Of a DNA stretch of 21,744 nt, positions 3,483 through 19,770 are shown piece after piece. The DNA comes from a virus, in IMG/VR virus record IMGVR_UViG_3300027985_000977, positions 1 through 21,744 of that record. One strand, written 5' to 3'. Below the pieces are notes generated by a model. That model was given only the letters and a program-made list of their open reading frames with translations, was not told the DNA's origin and searched no databases. The translations under genes and the position numbers were made by a program. How positions within the stretch are numbered: position 1 is the stretch's first letter; each line of letters begins with the position of its first letter.

Positions 3483-4031
3483 ATGCCTCCGGTCAACATC
3501 CGCGAGACCGTGCTCCAGGCCGTCCGGTCCTACGTCATCCAGGCCACGGGGCTGCCCTCCGCCTCGGTCATCATCGCCGGGGCAGGGCAGGTCCGGCCGT
3601 CCATGCCCTACATCTCCATCGTCGCCCTGACCCCCGGGATCAAGGTGGGGCAGGACGAGGTCCTGCGCAGCGTGACGCTGGCCGGCCAGTTGCAGGAGCG
3701 CCCGAGGGGGCACCGCCGCTGCACCGTGCAGGTCTCGGCCTGGGGGACGGACGCCTCGGACTACCTGGAGCTCGTGCGGCTCCAACTCGAGCTGCCAACG
3801 CAGAGGGAGATCCTCGACGTGGTGTCCATGCGGGTCATCGGGCAGGGCCCCGGCATGGGCCTGCGTGGCACTGGCTTCGAGGAGCGCTCCAACATGGACC
3901 TCGAGGTGACCTACCGCATCGAGATCGCCCCCGCCGACGCGGTGGCGGCTGAGCACTTCGAGTGGGAGGTCACCCTCTACCGCGACAACCCCCCGGCCGA
4001 TCTTGTGGCGGGGTCTACCGAGAGCATCTGA
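3483..4031 (+). CDS. Tail terminator / neck protein, gp12-like (LIC_12616-type)
   Basis: This 182-aa protein begins with 'IRETVLQAVRSYVIQATGLPSASVIIAG' and continues with 'PYISIVALTPG', then 'CTVQVSAWGTDASDYLELVRLQLELP' and a 'YRIEIAPA' strand. This helix-plus-sheet order is what I recall for the phage neck-terminator gp12-like (LIC_12616) family, which caps the tail tube and sheath. The Shine-Dalgarno GGAGGTG sits about six bases before ATG 3483. It ends in TGA followed at once by TAG. Position immediately before the sheath gene agrees. Confidence 0.68.
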   Translation: MPPVNIRETVLQAVRSYVIQATGLPSASVIIAGAGQVRPSMPYISIVALTPGIKVGQDEVLRSVTLAGQLQERPRGHRRCTVQVSAWGTDASDYLELVRLQLELPTQREILDVVSMRVIGQGPGMGLRGTGFEERSNMDLEVTYRIEIAPADAVAAEHFEWEVTLYRDNPPADLVAGSTESI

Positions 4032-4033
4032 TA

Positions 4034-4047
4034 GCGGCCTCTGCCGC
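4034..4047 (+). promoter_or_regulatory. Short hairpin abutting sheath RBS
   Basis: GCGGC (4034-4038) pairs with GCCGC (4043-4047) around CTCT. The Shine-Dalgarno GGAGGG (4049-4054) starts one base later. It is shorter than the hairpins before the capsid and tube genes but in the same position relative to the ribosome binding site. Confidence 0.4.
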
Positions 4048-4058
4048 CGGAGGGTAGG

Positions 4059-5195
4059 ATGAGCACCCCGATCGACCTCATGGACCAACTGATCACCGTC
4101 AACGTGGCCCTGTCCGGTGTCCCGGTGTCCCGCGCCGGCTTCGGCACGGTCATGCTCGTGAGCCCCAACGCGGCGCCGGTGTCCGGGCTCGTGCTCACCT
4201 ACACGAGCGCGACGGCCTCGACCTCGCTCGCCTCGGACCTCGGCTCCGGCGTCATCAACGCGGCCATCCAGGCGGCCGTGCTCAAGGGCTTCGCCCAGAG
4301 CCCCCGCCCCGCCGTCATCAAGGTCGGCAAGATCCCGGCCTTCACCCCGGTCCCGGGCCCCTCGACGCTGGCCACCGACATGGCCGCCATCGTGGCGCAG
4401 GACGACGACTTCTACGGCGTCGCCCTCGACGTGAGCGACTACACCACGGTGGGCGCCGACGAGCCCGAGATCGAGCTCCAGGCGAACGCCATGGCGGCCT
4501 GGTGCGAGACGGTGAACAAGGTCTTCCTGGCCAAGACCTGGGATGCCGACGTCTACAACGGCGCCGTCTCCACCGACCTGGCCAGCGACATCAAGGGCAG
4601 CGCCTACGAGAACACGGCGGTGGTCTGGTCGCAGCTCGTCGGTGGCCCCCCCGGGACGGCGGACCAGCCCATCGACATGGCGGCCCTCTGTCGCTGGCTC
4701 GCCTACGACCCCGACACGAAGAGCGCCCCCTTCTCGGCGGGCCTGACCGGGGTCACCCGCTGCCAGCTCACCGCTACCGGGCTGGACCTGAGCGCAGCGC
4801 AGATCGCCGCGGCGAAGGCCAAGTACGCCAGCGTGGCGCAGCTCTACGGCTCGGCGGCGGCCTTCCTCGACCCGGGGCTGAACGGCGCCGGGCGGCAGTG
4901 GAGCGAGGTGCTGAGCAAGCACTGGCTCCAGGCCCGCGTGCGTGAGGACGTGGCCGATCAGGCCGTGGCGCTCGCCGCTCGGGGTGACAAGTTCCCGCTG
5001 AGCGATGAGGGCGTGGCGATCTGCCAGGGCATCCTGGCCCGGCGGCTCCAGCAGGGCGTGACGGCGGGGCACTTCTCGACCTTCGCCATCACGAGCGGGA
5101 CCACGAACTCGACGACCCGCACGATCACGATCGGGGCGAATGCGACCGTGCTGGACTCGGCCCGCAGCTTCACCTTCAACATCAACTTCCTCTAG
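4059..5195 (+). CDS. Tail sheath protein (DUF3383-like)
   Basis: This 378-aa protein starts 'MSTPIDLMDQLITVNVALSG' followed by 'RAGFGTVMLVS', the opening typical of DUF3383 contractile sheath proteins. The middle has 'DDFYGVALDVSDYT' and the C-terminal third contains 'QLYGSAAAFLDPGLNG' and the 'LSDEGVAICQGILARRLQQGV' helix, with a final beta strand 'RSFTFNINFL' suited to the sheath-sheath interlock. It polymerises around the tube and contracts to drive injection. A strong Shine-Dalgarno precedes ATG 4059. The tube gene follows, as in contractile-tail operons. At 378 aa it is a compact, single-core sheath. Confidence 0.83.
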   Translation: MSTPIDLMDQLITVNVALSGVPVSRAGFGTVMLVSPNAAPVSGLVLTYTSATASTSLASDLGSGVINAAIQAAVLKGFAQSPRPAVIKVGKIPAFTPVPGPSTLATDMAAIVAQDDDFYGVALDVSDYTTVGADEPEIELQANAMAAWCETVNKVFLAKTWDADVYNGAVSTDLASDIKGSAYENTAVVWSQLVGGPPGTADQPIDMAALCRWLAYDPDTKSAPFSAGLTGVTRCQLTATGLDLSAAQIAAAKAKYASVAQLYGSAAAFLDPGLNGAGRQWSEVLSKHWLQARVREDVADQAVALAARGDKFPLSDEGVAICQGILARRLQQGVTAGHFSTFAITSGTTNSTTRTITIGANATVLDSARSFTFNINFL

Positions 5196-14885: not shown

Positions 14886-15932
14886 ATGCTTCGACGTGCT
14901 CTGCTCACCCTGTCCGCAGTCGTCGCCCTGGCGCTGCCCTCCGTCGCCTTCGCCCAGGGCGCCTACGGTCCCGGAGCGTGCGGGCTGGAGACCACCAGGG
15001 TCGCTCTCTGCACCGGGGGCCCCGCCGGCCCCGTGAACCTCGAGGAGATCGACGGCAACCCGGTCGACGTGGGCGCCGGCGTGGCCGGGCTCGGGACCCT
15101 GCGGATCATCCTCGCCAGCGACGACGCGACCGCTCTGGCGATCGCTGCGATGGCGGCATGGGACCTGGACACCGGGATCGTCACGGCGACCACCCAGCGG
15201 GTGACCTTGGCCACCGACGATCCCGCTTCGGTGTCGCTGGTGACCATCGCCGGCTGGACGCTCGGCGGCGGGCTGGCAGACGCCACCACGCAGCGGGTCT
15301 ACGAGGCCGACGACTCGCTCTTGTCCGCCGGCGTCCAGGCGATCGCTGAGGCCGTGGCGGCCCCCGCCGGCCCGATCCCCCCCTCGGTAATGCTGTTCGG
15401 CGCCGACGACGGGATCGCTACTCGGGCGCTGGTCGCAGACACCGCAGGTGCGCTCACCGTGGCGGCGGCGCAGCTTCCGCCTGCTCGTGGGGCGCAGGCT
15501 CAGGCGGACTCGCTGAGCGTCGTGCAGGCCACGGCGGACGTGTGGGAGGTCAACCAGACGCAGATCGGGGGCAACACCATTGACGCAGGCGCTGGGGCGG
15601 ACTCGACCGGGACGCAGCGCGTTGTGGAGGCCAGCCGGGACGGATCTGCCTACTCGGGCGGGACCGTCACCCAGGGCGCCGGGGACGCCACGATCGCCGT
15701 GCGTGCGACCCGCAAGTGGGCGCTGGTCCAGAACGTTGACGCGGACGGAGCCTTGTGCGTGGCCCTTGGATCTACCACGAACGCGTGCGCCGACTGTCAC
15801 CTGCTGGACGCTGCGGCGGCCGCTGGCGAGTCCGGCGGCACTTGGCAGATCGGAGACTGGGGCGGGGCGATCTCCGTCTGCGCCCCCGACGCTGGGACCA
15901 CGATCTCGTATCGGGTCACCGAGGCCTACTGA
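14886..15932 (+). CDS. Secreted-type fibre-region protein with signal peptide, 348 aa
   Basis: The first 24 residues form a clear Sec signal peptide: MLRR, a hydrophobic core, and a 'SVAFA' cleavage site before Gln-Gly. This is unusual for a virion gene. The mature part has repeated motifs: 'VDVGAGVAGLGTLRIILASDD' near residue 60, 'TTQRVTLATDD' (102), 'TTQRVYEADD' (135), and 'IDAGAGADSTGTQRVVEAS' (232). The last 75 residues ('WALVQNVDADGALCVALG' onward) look like a beta-sandwich with four Cys (about 291-337) that could form disulphides in the periplasm. I do not recognise a named family. AGGAGG precedes ATG 14886, and the stop overlaps the next start. It could be a fibre, a decoration or an exported host-surface factor. 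Confidence 0.7.
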   Translation: MLRRALLTLSAVVALALPSVAFAQGAYGPGACGLETTRVALCTGGPAGPVNLEEIDGNPVDVGAGVAGLGTLRIILASDDATALAIAAMAAWDLDTGIVTATTQRVTLATDDPASVSLVTIAGWTLGGGLADATTQRVYEADDSLLSAGVQAIAEAVAAPAGPIPPSVMLFGADDGIATRALVADTAGALTVAAAQLPPARGAQAQADSLSVVQATADVWEVNQTQIGGNTIDAGAGADSTGTQRVVEASRDGSAYSGGTVTQGAGDATIAVRATRKWALVQNVDADGALCVALGSTTNACADCHLLDAAAAAGESGGTWQIGDWGGAISVCAPDAGTTISYRVTEAY

Positions 15933-16519
15933 TGCGCCGGACTACCGCTGGCTGGCTGATGGCCGCTGCGCTGCTCGGCATCTTCGCCATGGCCCAGATC
16001 TCGCAGCCCTTCCCCGCCCGGCTAGACATGCTCGGCGGGGTCCCGACCGTCGACTGGGTCCACCATGAGGTCCACGACGGGCACACGTTTCTGGCTACCG
16101 ATCTGCAGACGATCAACGCCGGAGTGCCCAATCGGACGGTGTGGACGCTGACGACGGCGGCCAATGCCGCCCACACACTCTGCGCAGTCACCGCCAACGG
16201 AGAGGTGGAGATCTACGTCAACAAGTCGCCTACCATCTCGGCGGCTGGCGTTCTGGGCGTTCCGGTCAACCTGGACACGGCGAGTTCAACTGCTCCCGTT
16301 ACCACCGTGCACCGCAACGTCACGCTGTCGGCGGACGGGACCAAGCACGGAGTCTGGCTTGTCGGGACTTCGGCGCCTGCGTCTCGTGTCGGCGGCGGCG
16401 TCCGACTCGGGCAAGAGTCGCTGATCGGTCCGTCCAGCACATACGCTGTAATTGCCGTAGCGACGAACAACGGCACCAAGGTGGCGATCGAGTGCTCTTG
16501 GTACGAGGAGGCCCCATGA
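15932..16519 (+). CDS. Beta-sandwich phage protein with signal peptide, 195 aa
   Basis: This gene starts at ATG 15932, overlapping the previous stop (ATGA). The N-terminus (MRRTTAGW, hydrophobic core to 'GIFAMA' before Gln-Ile) looks like a signal peptide or a single membrane anchor. The rest, 'VHHEVHDGHTFLATDLQ', 'NRTVWTLTTAANAAHTLCAV', and a C-terminal 'TYAVIAVATNNGTKVAIECSWYEE', resembles a beta-sandwich family of small phage surface proteins ('VHxGxxF...') that are normally unexported. Two Cys residues in the mature part could pair. The stop overlaps the next ATG. The fold family is tentative. Confidence 0.68.
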   Translation: MRRTTAGWLMAAALLGIFAMAQISQPFPARLDMLGGVPTVDWVHHEVHDGHTFLATDLQTINAGVPNRTVWTLTTAANAAHTLCAVTANGEVEIYVNKSPTISAAGVLGVPVNLDTASSTAPVTTVHRNVTLSADGTKHGVWLVGTSAPASRVGGGVRLGQESLIGPSSTYAVIAVATNNGTKVAIECSWYEEAP

Positions 16520-17679
16520 CCGCGCTGCGATCTCTAGCTTTGGCGCTCGCCCTGCTGCTCCCGGTCCCCGCCCTGGCCCAGGGCCTCGGGTGCCCGGGGA
16601 TCGCTCAGCCGTGCGCAGCGACGACACCGGCCCCGACCGAAGACACGGTCTATGTCTACCCGGTCGTTGCGCAGTCCAGCCCAGGCGGGCTCGGCTCGCT
16701 GGCAATGTCCGCCGTCGAGACCGTCCGCTTCCTCATGGACGACCATGCCACCTACTCGGGCCCCGGCTGGACGCTGATCGAGGCCCGCAGCGACGGCGCC
16801 CGAGAGATCCCGGCGACGGCCAGCGATCTGGACAGCCTGGCCACGGCCGTCTCGTGGAAGGGCGACGGCTCCGGGCTCGCAGCAGGCGACTGGGTTGTGC
16901 TGCGGTCTGCTGCCAGTGTTGAGGCCGCCGGCAGGTTCATGGGCTACTTTGAGATCGGGGCCAACGACACTTGGAACTACTGGCTGTTCCCGAACGACGA
17001 CTTCACGGCTCAGGGGGCCGGCAATCAGAGCCCGCCGACGACGGGTGACGGTCTCCCGGCCAGCCCCTACGTCGTGGGCAACGGCGCCTCGCTAGCAGCG
17101 ATCACGACCTACACCGGGGCCGGCGACCTGCACATCGCGGCCACTGCGGCGGGCATGTCGTGGATCCGCGACGACGGGTCCAGCAACATCGACTGGATGT
17201 ACCTGGGCCATGCACCGGCCGTCTCTGGCACGGTAGGAGGCGCAGCCGACGACGCCCGGCCTTGGGTCGTGCTGGGCAACGGGCAGGCCAACGTCTACGC
17301 GTCCGTTGGCGGCGGAGGTGCCTACTGGTGCCGCACGGACTACGCAGCGGCCGCCGTGGTCTGCGGGACCAAGGGCGACACGGCCAACGGAGCGACCTAC
17401 TTTCAAGCGACGGCGACCACGCAGCCGACCGCCAACCGCTGGCAGATGCTGGAACTCCCGCTGGTCTTCCTCGACACCGGCGACACCCAGATGCTGGCGC
17501 CGAACAAGCGGCTCGCGGTGGGCATCTCGCAGCTCGTGGACGGCGGCGCCAACCCGTACCGAACCACGATCTCCAGCGACGGCTACACCACCGGCGACCC
17601 CGACTGGGCGTGCTGGTCCACTGCCGCCGCCTATGGCCCGGTCTGCCTGCGCAGCGACGGCGTGACGGCCTGGCCATGA
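16516..17679 (+). CDS. Fibre-like protein with signal peptide, 387 aa
   Basis: The real start is ATG 16516, within a longer frame; it overlaps the preceding stop. 'MTALRSLALALALLLPVPALA' followed by Gln-Gly is a good Sec signal peptide. The mature protein has two Cys near its start, then 'DDHATYSGPGWTLIEARSDG', 'AGDWVVLRSAASVEAAGRFMGYFEI', 'WNYWLFPNDDFTAQG' and 'RWQMLELPLVFLDTGDT'. These strand-rich Trp/Tyr/Gly patterns resemble distal fibre or receptor-binding proteins I have seen in marine and soil phages, but no named family is assigned. The C-terminal third contains several Cys. It is followed by an overlapping ATGA at 17676. Confidence 0.68.
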   Translation: MTALRSLALALALLLPVPALAQGLGCPGIAQPCAATTPAPTEDTVYVYPVVAQSSPGGLGSLAMSAVETVRFLMDDHATYSGPGWTLIEARSDGAREIPATASDLDSLATAVSWKGDGSGLAAGDWVVLRSAASVEAAGRFMGYFEIGANDTWNYWLFPNDDFTAQGAGNQSPPTTGDGLPASPYVVGNGASLAAITTYTGAGDLHIAATAAGMSWIRDDGSSNIDWMYLGHAPAVSGTVGGAADDARPWVVLGNGQANVYASVGGGGAYWCRTDYAAAAVVCGTKGDTANGATYFQATATTQPTANRWQMLELPLVFLDTGDTQMLAPNKRLAVGISQLVDGGANPYRTTISSDGYTTGDPDWACWSTAAAYGPVCLRSDGVTAWP

Positions 17680-17756
17680 GGCGCGGGCCTCTGGACGGGC
17701 CAGACGAGCCCGAGGACCTGCGGCGACTGGTGGCCAGTGCGCAGGGGAACGTGCGC

Positions 17757-17784
17757 TTGCTGGCTCGCCCTTGCGTGCTACACT
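17757..17784 (+). promoter_or_regulatory. Candidate extended -10 promoter before acb2-like gene
   Basis: TTGCTG (17757-17762), a 16-base spacer, and TACACT (17779-17784) preceded by TGC make an extended -10 box. Transcription would start near 17791, about 23 bases before ATG 17814. It lies inside the possible N-terminal extension of the same frame, which argues that the shorter start is used at least from this promoter. The -35 match is only three of six. Confidence 0.4.
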
Positions 17785-17813
17785 GTCTCCCGGACCACAC
17801 TGGAGGAAGCGCC

Positions 17814-18218
17814 ATGCAACGAGAGATCAAGCACCATCACGACGGCCAGGGCCTCACCGAGCTTTGCCACGTCTACGCCGTCGACCCCCCGCACCCGGTC
17901 AACGGGGCGCATCACGAGTACCGGATCGACCGAGAACTGAGCCAAGAAGACCTGCGAGAGGGCTGCGGGGTCTCCGTGTGTGCCGGCTGGATCCAGTTCC
18001 AGCGCGGCCCGCGCACCGCTTCCGACTCAACTCCGGGCACGCTTGACGGCGCCTTGCTGTCCGTGCTGATCGACCGGTTCGAGTCGTTCCAGTCCGGCCC
18101 ATTCGCCTGCCCCGAGAACGGCGAGACCCTCGGTCACCTGCGCGCCGCCCTGGACTGCATGATCGCCCGTGCACGCGAGCGAGCTAGCCGCGGGGTGCTC
18201 GGTAAGAACGCCAAGTGA
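17814..18218 (+). CDS. Acb2/Tad1-like cyclic nucleotide sponge (anti-CBASS/anti-Thoeris type)
   Basis: This 134-aa protein has the signature I associate with the Acb2/Tad1 family: 'HHEYRID' (33-39), 'IQFQRGP' (60-66), 'LLSVLIDRFESFQSGPFACPEN' (81-102) and 'RARERASRGVLG' (119-130). Characterised members bind the second messengers made by CBASS or Thoeris (cyclic di/trinucleotides, gcADPR-type molecules), so the host defence effector is not activated. ATG 17814 has GGAGGAA upstream and a candidate promoter before it. The frame is also open back to ATG 17676, giving a possible 180-aa form that overlaps the fibre stop. The first 30 residues (with HHH) differ from the family pattern I recall. Which messenger it binds cannot be read from sequence. 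Confidence 0.72.
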   Translation: MQREIKHHHDGQGLTELCHVYAVDPPHPVNGAHHEYRIDRELSQEDLREGCGVSVCAGWIQFQRGPRTASDSTPGTLDGALLSVLIDRFESFQSGPFACPENGETLGHLRAALDCMIARARERASRGVLGKNAK

Positions 18219-18235
18219 GCGCCTATGGAGGCCCG

Positions 18236-18370
18236 ATGACTTGCAACCGCTGCGTGCTCTGGGCCCCGTGGCCGTGGCGCTGGCTGATCGAGGCGCTCCC
18301 ATTCAACGGCGCCTTCTTCGCCTACGAGGGGGGCTACTGGCCCGCTCTCTGGCACTGGATGCGAGGATGA
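18236..18370 (+). CDS. Trp-rich 44-aa small protein
   Basis: A 44-codon ORF lies exactly between the sponge gene and the next gene. It starts at ATG 18236 with GGAGG (18227-18231) four bases upstream, and its TGA overlaps the following ATG (18367). The product has seven Trp residues, including 'VLWAPWPWRWLIEALPF' and 'YWPALWHWM', and two Cys near the start. It has amphipathic, membrane-active character but no long clean transmembrane segment. The function is unknown. The coupled position supports translation; composition alone would not. Confidence 0.5.
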   Translation: MTCNRCVLWAPWPWRWLIEALPFNGAFFAYEGGYWPALWHWMRG

Positions 18371-18663
18371 TCCAAGACACCATGCGGCGCACTGTCGAGT
18401 GGATGCAGAGCCACGGGTTCAAGACGACCGACTCCGGCGACGGGGCGCAGAACGTGGCTGCTGGGATGGGCTGCGCGATCGACCGGCCCCACGTCTTCGC
18501 GACAGTCTCCCCGGCGGACCTAGTCAGCGAGGCTGACCGGCTGTGCGTGCTGGCGAGCGTGGAGGGAATGGGCGGGACAGTGGAGGCCACTTACAGCCCG
18601 GACGACGGGATCGCCGTGGTCTGCCTCTTCGGCGTGCGTGACTCCGACTGGACGGCCCCATGA
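18367..18663 (+). CDS. Conserved phage protein of unknown function, 98 aa
   Basis: This gene starts at ATG 18367, overlapping the previous TGA. The 98-aa product begins 'MIQDTMRRTVEWMQSHGFKTTDSGDG' and contains 'AAGMGCAIDRPHVFATVSPADLVSEADRLCVLA' and 'VEATYSPDDGIAVVCLFGV'. I recall similar short proteins with 'HGFxTTDSGDG' and 'DxPHVF' from other phages, but no function is known to me. It is soluble, alpha/beta in pattern. Its last four bases overlap the endolysin start (ATGA at 18660). A link to the neighbouring anti-defence gene is possible but only by location. Confidence 0.72.
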   Translation: MIQDTMRRTVEWMQSHGFKTTDSGDGAQNVAAGMGCAIDRPHVFATVSPADLVSEADRLCVLASVEGMGGTVEATYSPDDGIAVVCLFGVRDSDWTAP

Positions 18664-19379
18664 CCTACCCAACCGGCTCCGGCCCCCTCGGCCTTCCAGA
18701 CCTATCCCGCACCCTGCCCGACGTGCGAGCCGCTGGCGAGGCGGTCGTGGCCTGGGCCCTGGCGCAGTGGGAGCAGGGGATCCGCGACCGGCCCGAGGAC
18801 TACGACCGGATCACACCCTACCTGCGGGCGGTGGGCGACGCTCGGGACTACCCTGCCCGCAGCAAGGGGCGGGACTACGCGTGGTGCGGGGCCTTCGCTG
18901 CGGCGGCCTGGCGCTCCGTCGGGCTCCACCCGACGCTGGCAAAGCACCTGTTCCCCAGCACCTACCGCCTCGCCCTCTTCGGGCAGTACCGCACCGACCG
19001 GCGCCTCTGGCCCAGCGACCGGGTGACCCTGCCCGGTGGCGAGCGGCTGAGCCTGCGGGACCTTCACGCCGGGGCCCCCCGCTACTGCGAGGTGGTGCCG
19101 CCCGGGGCTCGCCCTCGGCTGCCGCTGCGCCCGGGCGACGTGTGCTGCGTCGGGGCAGTGGACGGGCCATGGTGGGGCTCGCACGTCGTCCTGGTGGACT
19201 CGCTGACCGCCCTGGCCCAGGACTCGTTCCTGACCCTCGAGGGCAACGGCGTCGGGGAACTCGGCGCCGGGCTGGGGCGTTGCGAGGGTGTGGTGCGCAA
19301 CAGCCGGTCCCTGGCCAGCGTGCGCCTGCATCTCCGCCCAAGCCCTTGGGATCTTGTGCCGGAGCTGGCATACTCTTGA
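18660..19379 (+). CDS. Endolysin, CHAP/NlpC-P60-type peptidase or amidase
   Basis: This 239-aa protein has a Cys-His-Asn arrangement typical of CHAP-like papain-fold cell-wall hydrolases: Cys76 in 'YAWCGAFAAAAW', a 'LRPGDVCCVG' strand (156-164), His175 in 'WWGSHVVLVDS', and Asn196 in 'LEGNGVG'. It would cut peptide bonds or the amide bond in peptidoglycan. No signal peptide is visible, so it needs the holin to reach the wall. The N-terminal 70 residues are helical and Arg/Asp-rich. It overlaps the previous gene (ATGA) and precedes the holin/spanin genes, which confirms a lysis cassette. The substrate bond cannot be assigned from sequence. Confidence 0.75.
   Translation: MTYPTGSGPLGLPDLSRTLPDVRAAGEAVVAWALAQWEQGIRDRPEDYDRITPYLRAVGDARDYPARSKGRDYAWCGAFAAAAWRSVGLHPTLAKHLFPSTYRLALFGQYRTDRRLWPSDRVTLPGGERLSLRDLHAGAPRYCEVVPPGARPRLPLRPGDVCCVGAVDGPWWGSHVVLVDSLTALAQDSFLTLEGNGVGELGAGLGRCEGVVRNSRSLASVRLHLRPSPWDLVPELAYS
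19346..19374 (+). promoter_or_regulatory. Candidate promoter before holin-side lysis genes
   Basis: TTGGGA (19346-19351), a 17-base spacer and CATACT (19369-19374) with an upstream TGG form an extended -10-type promoter at the end of the endolysin gene. The start would be near 19381. A 5-bp hairpin GCCGC/GCGGC (19384-19397) follows almost at once, then GGGGG as ribosome binding site of the next gene. Confidence 0.4.
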
Positions 19380-19383
19380 CGAG

Positions 19384-19397
19384 GCCGCAACCGCGGC
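19384..19397 (+). promoter_or_regulatory. 5' leader hairpin before TM/coiled-coil gene
   Basis: GCCGC (19384-19388) pairs with GCGGC (19393-19397) around AACC, five bases before the GGGGG ribosome binding site. It repeats the hairpin-then-RBS arrangement of the capsid, sheath and tube genes. Confidence 0.35.
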
Positions 19398-19410
19398 GAC
19401 TGGGGGTTCC

Positions 19411-19770
19411 ATGAAGGACGCAGACGCCGCGCAGAGATCGCAGACGCAGGCGGTCGGATGGCCGACTCTCGCGGGGCTCGCCCTCGCCGTCATCGGTTCT
19501 ATCTCCGGGCTGCTGCTCTTCACCGCCGACGGGCGCTACGTTCGCCCCGCCGAGGCGCGTGAGGTGGCCAAGGACGTAGTACAGGCCGAGGCGCAGAGCA
19601 AGTCCGAAGCGGCCGACGTCGAGCGCGTCAACCGCAACGAGCACGAGGCCATCCGCCGCGAGATCACCGAGCGGCTCACCCGCATCGAGGAACGCCAGGG
19701 CGCCATCACCCGCGCCCTGGAGAAGCTCCAGGCAAACATCGAGCGCATGCACCAGAGGAGAGATCGATGA
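19411..19770 (+). CDS. Lysis-cassette TM plus coiled-coil protein
   Basis: This 119-aa protein starts at ATG 19411. It has one membrane segment at about residues 18-37 ('PTLAGLALAVIGSISGLLLF') and a long charged helix from about 60 to 115 with 'IRREITERLTRIEERQGAITRALEKLQANIERM', a good coiled coil. That layout fits an inner-membrane lysis accessory, for example a holin partner or an additional i-spanin-like protein. It is unlike XhlA, where the order is coiled coil then TM. It overlaps the holin candidate by four bases. The exact role is unresolved. Confidence 0.65.
   Translation: MKDADAAQRSQTQAVGWPTLAGLALAVIGSISGLLLFTADGRYVRPAEAREVAKDVVQAEAQSKSEAADVERVNRNEHEAIRREITERLTRIEERQGAITRALEKLQANIERMHQRRDR

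What the first reader, a model, noticed from the sequence alone, without database searches (positions are those of the whole stretch)
17814..18218. Acb2/Tad1-like anti-defence sponge placed between fibre and lysis genes
The protein carries the motif series FQxGP, LxxxxIDRxxxFQSGPFACxEN and RxxERxxRGVxG, which I link to phage proteins that bind CBASS/Thoeris signalling molecules. The N-terminal 30 residues with a His triplet are not part of the pattern I recall and the final motif has Leu where Glu is usual (RGVLG versus RGVEG), so its ligand preference may differ. It is inside a late-gene region but has its own candidate promoter, which would allow early expression.
Basis: partly seen in the sequence, partly recalled or inferred. 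Interest (0 to 1): 0.8.

Follow-up and report, generated by a model that had tools for sequence, protein, structure and literature searches.

The report
Phage Tad1 immune-signal sponge, CbTad1-like
This phage gene encodes a divergent but otherwise ordinary member of the known Tad1 family, proteins that soak up the small signalling molecules bacteria use to trigger anti-phage suicide, and it sits on a small cassette that a sister phage lacks at that place.

Summary
The 134-residue protein at 17814-18218 (+) is a real gene and a Tad1 (Thoeris anti-defence 1) family member, not an Acb2. It matches Clostridium botulinum prophage Tad1 by sequence (E 3.7e-14; family profile 7.1e-38). Its AlphaFold model (pLDDT 89.9) superposes on CbTad1 bound to gcADPR (Z 14.9, 125 of 125 chain residues). 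Pfam's hairpin model misses it, but also misses 32 of its 91 alignment partners. The N-terminus aligns with the family, and its HH(H)DGxGLxExC form recurs in the closest relatives found (57% and 52%). Leu in RGVLG occurs in 13 of 101 distinct proteins; in 10 of these it goes with Arg67 and a one-residue loop insertion, as in CbTad1. The likely function, inferred from CbTad1, is sequestering gcADPR and cyclic oligonucleotides; no ligand was tested. The gene lies on an approximately 1-kb segment absent at that place from a syntenic sister contig, so it is probably an accessory (moron) gene. A promoter scan found no site. New member of a known kind; low interest.

The parts
17814..18218 (+). tad1: 134-aa Tad1-family protein (strands in residues 3-62, then helices 78-94 and 100-125)
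17802..17806 (+). Shine-Dalgarno GGAGG, 7 nt before the ATG
   Evidence: read directly
17757..17784 (+). weak promoter-like site by eye (TTGCTG, 16 nt, TGcTACACT); not found by the consensus scan
   Evidence: by eye; one search found 0 sites
17681..18673 (+). accessory segment (about 1 kb; edges as BLAST gives them, so approximate) absent at that place from the syntenic sister contig L116; carries tad1 and two small ORFs
   Evidence: 17639-17680 matches L116 3946-3987 and 18674-19373 matches L116 4006-4696
18236..18370 (+). 44-aa ORF in the segment; no homologue in the loci searched
   Evidence: positive coding score in its frame (f2 of the range given)
18367..18663 (+). 98-aa ORF in the segment; a homologue lies directly after a CbTad1-type tad1 in L125
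   Evidence: coding score +0.574 in its frame (f1 of the range given)

Best explanation
The gene encodes a Tad1 sponge of the CbTad1 clade. Shown here: sequence homology, the Tad1 fold, the clade traits, and presence on a segment missing at that place from a sister contig. Inferred from CbTad1 and CmTad1: the protein dimerises and assembles as a hexamer (three dimers). It would hold gcADPR and some cyclic dinucleotides in pockets between protomers, and cyclic trinucleotides such as cA3 at the trimer interfaces. It would thus keep Thoeris and CBASS effectors from being activated during infection. It acts by stoichiometric binding, not catalysis, so strong expression should matter; the good Shine-Dalgarno fits that. 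Expression timing is unknown.
For: Sequence: CbTad1 E 3.7e-14 over window residues 29-134; profile of 92 members 7.1e-38 over profile positions 2-129. Structure: pLDDT 89.9; Foldseek hits 1-20 are CbTad1 or CmTad1, best E 1.1e-11 to the 1''-2' gcADPR complex 7uaw; VIA Z 14.9, rmsd 1.8, 125 of 125 chain residues. Columns G75, Q93, G95, R119 and R123 are invariant in the 92 rows. Clade: an 11-row group with CbTad1 has support 100/96, all with Leu. Oligomer, pockets and ligands of Tad1: passages of review PMC12043709.
Against: No ligand, oligomer or phage assay. Identity to CbTad1 is only 35% over 122 columns. The window row sits on a long branch (3.74) that the tree program flags, and its bootstrap had not settled, so side-chain contacts may have changed. 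Pfam PF24729 gives no hit. The host and its defence systems are unknown.
Confidence: 0.9

Rival explanations
1. A Tad1-fold protein whose pocket has drifted to another immune nucleotide (for example another cyclic ADPR isomer, His-ADPR or a particular cyclic trinucleotide), so that it counters a different defence system than CbTad1 does.
For: Only 35% identity to CbTad1; long branch; substitutions at usually fixed positions such as T105 (A in 94 of 101 rows) and M116 (L in 91 of 101); the C-terminal tail takes part in the pocket.
Against: The features that set it apart from most Tad1 are those of the CbTad1 clade, and the fold superposes end to end.
Confidence: 0.07
2. An Acb2-type sponge (no beta domain, cyclic oligonucleotides only).
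For: Shared two-helix hairpin; T4 Vs.4, which I recall as an Acb2, appears as a weak match, Z 5.1 over 60 residues.
Against: Beta strands fill the N-terminal half; CbTad1 Z is 14.9 against 5.1, and unrelated helical proteins score as high as or higher than Vs.4 (ClpB, Z 6.5); no Acb2 chain is among the sequence matches.
Confidence: 0.01
3. A decayed, non-functional Tad1 remnant.
For: Divergent; absent at that place from the sister contig.
Against: Intact frame, good ribosome-binding site, coding codon usage, family-invariant residues kept.
Confidence: 0.02

Closest known systems
CbTad1 (Clostridium botulinum prophage Tad1; PDB 7uav, 7uaw, 8smd, 8kbe, 8kbf)
   Same: Full-length fold (Z 14.9), Arg in the GxR loop, one-residue-longer loop before the helices, xVLG tail.
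   Different: 35% identity over 122 columns; the window has the HHHDGxGLTELC N-terminus where CbTad1 has a shorter STIQKREKLN stretch.
L119/L120 and L121: Tad1-like genes in MAG contigs of an uncultured proteobacterium and an uncultured bacterium (CALDOK010000471, CALEMW010000171, CALEMW010000008)
   Same: 57% and 52% identity by tblastn (65% and 56% over 133 aligned columns); same HH(H)DGxGLxExC N-terminus, QRGPRxxxxSTPGTLDGALL loop and RGVLGxNxK tail. L119 and L120 are near-copies (99.8% in DNA).
   Different: Longer stretch before the fourth strand; not characterised.
CmTad1 (PDB 8kbb, 8kbc, 8kbd) and SBSphiJ7 Tad1
   Same: Same fold (CmTad1 Z 12.7); SBSphiJ7 Tad1 aligns at 27%.
   Different: Glu-type tail (KGIEGTS in CmTad1; RGVEGTHEK in SBSphiJ7) and no GxR Arg or loop insertion (CmTad1 FQEGPIKEYGINGV; SBSphiJ7).
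Acb2 (T4 Vs.4, PDB 7uq2; that Vs.4 is an Acb2 is recalled)
   Same: Two-helix hairpin region (Z 5.1, 60 residues; no better than unrelated rows there).
   Different: No N-terminal beta domain (Acb2 layout from PMC12043709); no sequence match found here.

Membership tests
Tad1 | Sequence homology to characterised Tad1 | tested here: met
   CbTad1 phmmer E 3.7e-14; family profile 7.1e-38; same clade as CbTad1, 100/96
Tad1 | Four N-terminal beta strands followed by two long C-terminal helices | tested here: met
   E3-5, E18-22, E35-40, a short helix 44-48, E55-62, H78-94, H100-125; feature as given in PMC12043709
Tad1 | Structural match to solved Tad1 | tested here: met
   7uaw Z 14.9, rmsd 1.8, 125 of 125 chain residues; Foldseek E 1.1e-11
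Tad1 | Pfam PF24729 Acb2_Tad1_hairpin hit | tested here: inconclusive
   No hit; PF24729 is reported for 59 of 92 alignment members at E<=1, the window among the 33 without, so it lacks sensitivity for this branch
Tad1 | Hexamer of three dimers | not testable with these tools
   No complex prediction available; PMC12043709 gives it for Tad1
Tad1 | Binds gcADPR and cyclic oligonucleotides; inhibits Thoeris/CBASS | not testable with these tools
   Needs protein and phage assays
Acb2 | Short N-terminal helix plus two long helices, without a beta domain | tested here: not met
   Beta strands fill the N-terminal half; Acb2 layout from PMC12043709

The most novel reading that the evidence does not exclude
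The HH(H)DGxGLxExC subclade (window, L119-L121) is a Tad1 variant with its own ligand range, and the segment is a compact counter-defence cassette: the 98-aa neighbour, whose homologue directly follows a CbTad1-type tad1 in L125, would be a second, undescribed anti-defence protein.
Probability: 0.07. Interest if true: 0.5.

Novelty: new member of a known kind. Interest (0 to 1): 0.2.

Why it matters
It extends the CbTad1 branch to a high-GC (70%) phage that has no near DNA match in the held phage records, and shows tad1 as a present/absent cassette at one place in two syntenic contigs. It also shows that a common profile (PF24729) misses about a third of the Tad1 proteins collected here (33 of 92), so counts made with it alone would be low. 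The mechanism itself is already known.

Tried and rejected
A single-sequence scan of viral contigs with P0001 found no relative; two- and four-row alignments did. NCBIfam and PADLOC gave 0 families. A start at ATG 17676 (in frame, overlapping the upstream stop) was rejected: its extra 46 codons score 0.03 for coding, above the other two frames but far below tad1 itself, I see no good Shine-Dalgarno before it, and family N-termini agree with 17814. Plasmids: no match at E 1e-3. The whole window has no near match in the phage records (megablast). Capsid as a handle on phage kin: no viral contigs relative; the upstream fibre-like gene also none, although L116 holds a nucleotide-level relative of its first part, so that kind of search is insensitive. 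Tad1 in the rest of the sister contig: none, with the window and the L010 record as positive controls; that contig may be a fragment. The 98-aa ORF: no match in phage records at E<=1, none in L116; one viral contigs relative, L139, whose 141,696-base record has no Tad1 match at E<=1. So the pairing with tad1 is seen in 2 of the 3 records with a clear copy, which argues against a strict link. In one search (10 records, 5 with a match at E<=1) the matches beyond the window and L125 are weak: L020's record at E 0.004 and three above 0.1; not followed. The primary Tad1 papers are not held; ligand statements rest on passages of a review, passages of PMC12657218 and PDB titles. Passages of PMC11722364 and PMC13299392 were seen and added nothing on this protein. 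That CbTad1 R57, F82, N92, R109 and R113 matter for ligand binding is recalled and comes from no call; by the alignment these would be window R67, F92, N102, R119 and R123, all the same residue types.

Full report
What is there. The ORF at 17814-18218 (+) encodes 134 residues. It has a GGAGG ribosome-binding site 7 nt before the ATG, and its frame scores as coding with the codon usage of other window genes (+0.433, against -0.474 and -1.019 in the other two frames).

Family. Pfam, NCBIfam and PADLOC report nothing, while PHROG 2428 (unknown function) matches at E 1.7e-19. Against solved structures the best matches are Tad1 of a Clostridium botulinum prophage (E 3.7e-14), gp184 (6.4e-5) and a second Tad1, 8kbb (5.2e-4), which is CmTad1 by its title. 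A profile of 92 members, the window included, finds CbTad1 at 7.1e-38 over profile positions 2-129. As a control for the Pfam miss, the same library reports PF24729 for 1 of 5 phage relatives and for 59 of the 92 alignment members at E<=1; the miss therefore says little.

Structure. AlphaFold2 with the 92-row alignment gives pLDDT 89.9 and pTM 0.80: strands 3-5, 18-22, 35-40, a short helix 44-48, strand 55-62, then helices 78-94 and 100-125. Foldseek's first 20 PDB hits are all CbTad1 or CmTad1, the best being CbTad1 with 1''-2' gcADPR (E 1.1e-11); the next hits have E 0.5 or more. VIA-align gives Z 14.9, rmsd 1.8, 125 of 125 chain residues; CmTad1 Z 12.7; T4 Vs.4 (recalled as an Acb2) only 5.1 over 60 residues, no better than unrelated helical proteins in that list. 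This is the beta1-beta4 plus alpha1-alpha2 layout that review PMC12043709 gives for Tad1, in contrast to Acb2 (passages read).

The two oddities. I collected 115 loci (the window as L001, 8 from phage records, 106 from viral contigs) with 101 distinct proteins. At the RGVxG position 85 have Glu and 13 Leu. Ten rows, the window among them, have Leu together with Arg67 and one extra residue in the loop before helix 1; 3 have Leu alone, 2 the extra residue alone, 86 none of the three. CbTad1 has all three (alignment). In a 98-row tree (4 of the 101 rows, truncated or doubtful, dropped; CbTad1 added) the window and CbTad1 lie in an 11-row clade with support 100/96, all Leu; the Leu label needs 3 changes over the whole tree. 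The tree warns that the window's branch is long (3.74), that its join with L092 may be false and that the bootstrap had not settled; the shared insertion and Arg point the same way. A genome-contig scan with a CbTad1-clade alignment returned 13 loci: by reading them, 9 of 13 are Leu-type and 4 Glu-type; the query favours the Leu type. The closest, L119 and its near-copy L120 (57%) and L121 (52%), share the N-terminal HH(H)DGxGLxExC. So the His-rich start is a subclade trait, and the region aligns with the N-terminus (Arg, Glu/Thr, Ile/Leu, then His, then GAxHxY) of the family at large.

Surroundings. The window is a 21,744-base virus record with Pfam matches to a major capsid protein, DUF3383, hub gp41, xxxxx_N, baseplate J and DUF2612 proteins, and a tape-measure match below the curated cut-off, so the gene is in the structural region. 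A sister contig, L116 (IMGVR_UViG_3300027985_000690), matches at 82-88% in DNA on both sides: window 15242-17210 pairs with L116 1585-3553, 17639-17680 with 3946-3987, and 18674-19373 with 4006-4696; the end of the fibre-like gene (17211-17638) gave no DNA match. The 993 bases between hold tad1, a 44-aa ORF and a 98-aa ORF in the window, where L116 has 18 bases; the edges are those BLAST gives and cut into the first bases of the next gene. The segment's G+C (0.681) is close to the window's (0.701). No Tad1 match occurs elsewhere in the 37-kb sister contig, while the window and the L010 record, searched together with it as controls, do match; L116 also lacks the two small ORFs. tad1 is thus probably an accessory (moron) gene here, though which of the two states is older was not tested. 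In L121 tad1 likewise follows genes that look, by eye, like a tail fibre, an amidase and a small membrane protein; in L013 it sits near portal- and capsid-like genes (by eye, not profiled). In phage OLIVR5 it lies among replication and recombination genes. A late-region position is therefore neither unique nor general.

Promoter. The scan found 0 sigma-70 sites in 17000-19500 (shuffles: mean 0.1), and other promoter types are not covered by it. A TTGCTG-16-TGcTACACT site at 17757-17784 is visible by eye but has only 3 of 6 -35 matches. Early expression is not supported, nor excluded.

How it works. By homology it sequesters signals without cleaving them. Per the review, Tad1 binds gcADPR and cyclic dinucleotides in the same six pockets and cyclic trinucleotides at two trimer interfaces. 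PDB titles list CbTad1 with 1''-2' gcADPR, 1''-3' gcADPR, and 1',3'-cADPR plus cA3. A 2025 paper reports that co-expressing CbTad1 with the Panoptes operon stops colony formation, which its authors put down to sequestration of 2',3'-c-di-AMP (PMC12657218, passages), so such a sponge can also be a liability. That the window protein does any of this is inference.

Verdict. New member of a known kind: a divergent CbTad1-type Tad1, on an accessory segment.

Noticed in passing
L005:712-1725 (Burkholderia phage FLC9, gp131): A cyclophilin-type peptidyl-prolyl isomerase (PF00160, E 2.5e-44, residues 3-162) is fused in frame to a C-terminal Tad1-like domain. A library search for papers with tad1, phage and cyclophilin gave 0. 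The related L099 reading frame (383 codons) matches it only over its C-terminal half.
   Followed up: partly
window 18367-18663: 98-aa ORF next to tad1; a 37-38% homologue directly follows a CbTad1-type tad1 in L125 (1044-1358), and a third copy (L139) has no Tad1 match in its record.
   Followed up: partly
Pfam PF24729 and the members of alignment A5: The Acb2_Tad1_hairpin model is reported for only 59 of 92 Tad1-family members at E<=1; family counts made with it alone would be low.
   Followed up: yes
L002:2998-3399; L009:1372-1725: Tad1-family genes carry other names in public records: 'ABC transporter ATPase' (phage OLIVR5) and 'structural protein' (Lactococcus phage 1706); the PDB molecule name of 7uav is also 'ABC transporter ATPase'.
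   Followed up: no
L126, L127 (Clostridium cadaveris NZ_CP076620.1): Two CbTad1-type genes in one chromosome, in stretches about 98.6% identical in DNA; two related prophages would explain it, not tested.
   Followed up: no
window 18660-19379: Candidate endolysin (WCGAF motif, read by eye) with no Pfam or PHROG match, no phage-record match at E<=0.01 and only chance-level PDB matches (E 0.13 and 0.4); 84% identical in the sister contig L116.
   Followed up: partly
L116:5116-5817: The sister contig carries, after its endolysin candidate and a small membrane-like protein, an ORF with calcineurin-like phosphoesterase motifs (recognised from memory); the window has no counterpart at E<=0.01.
   Followed up: partly
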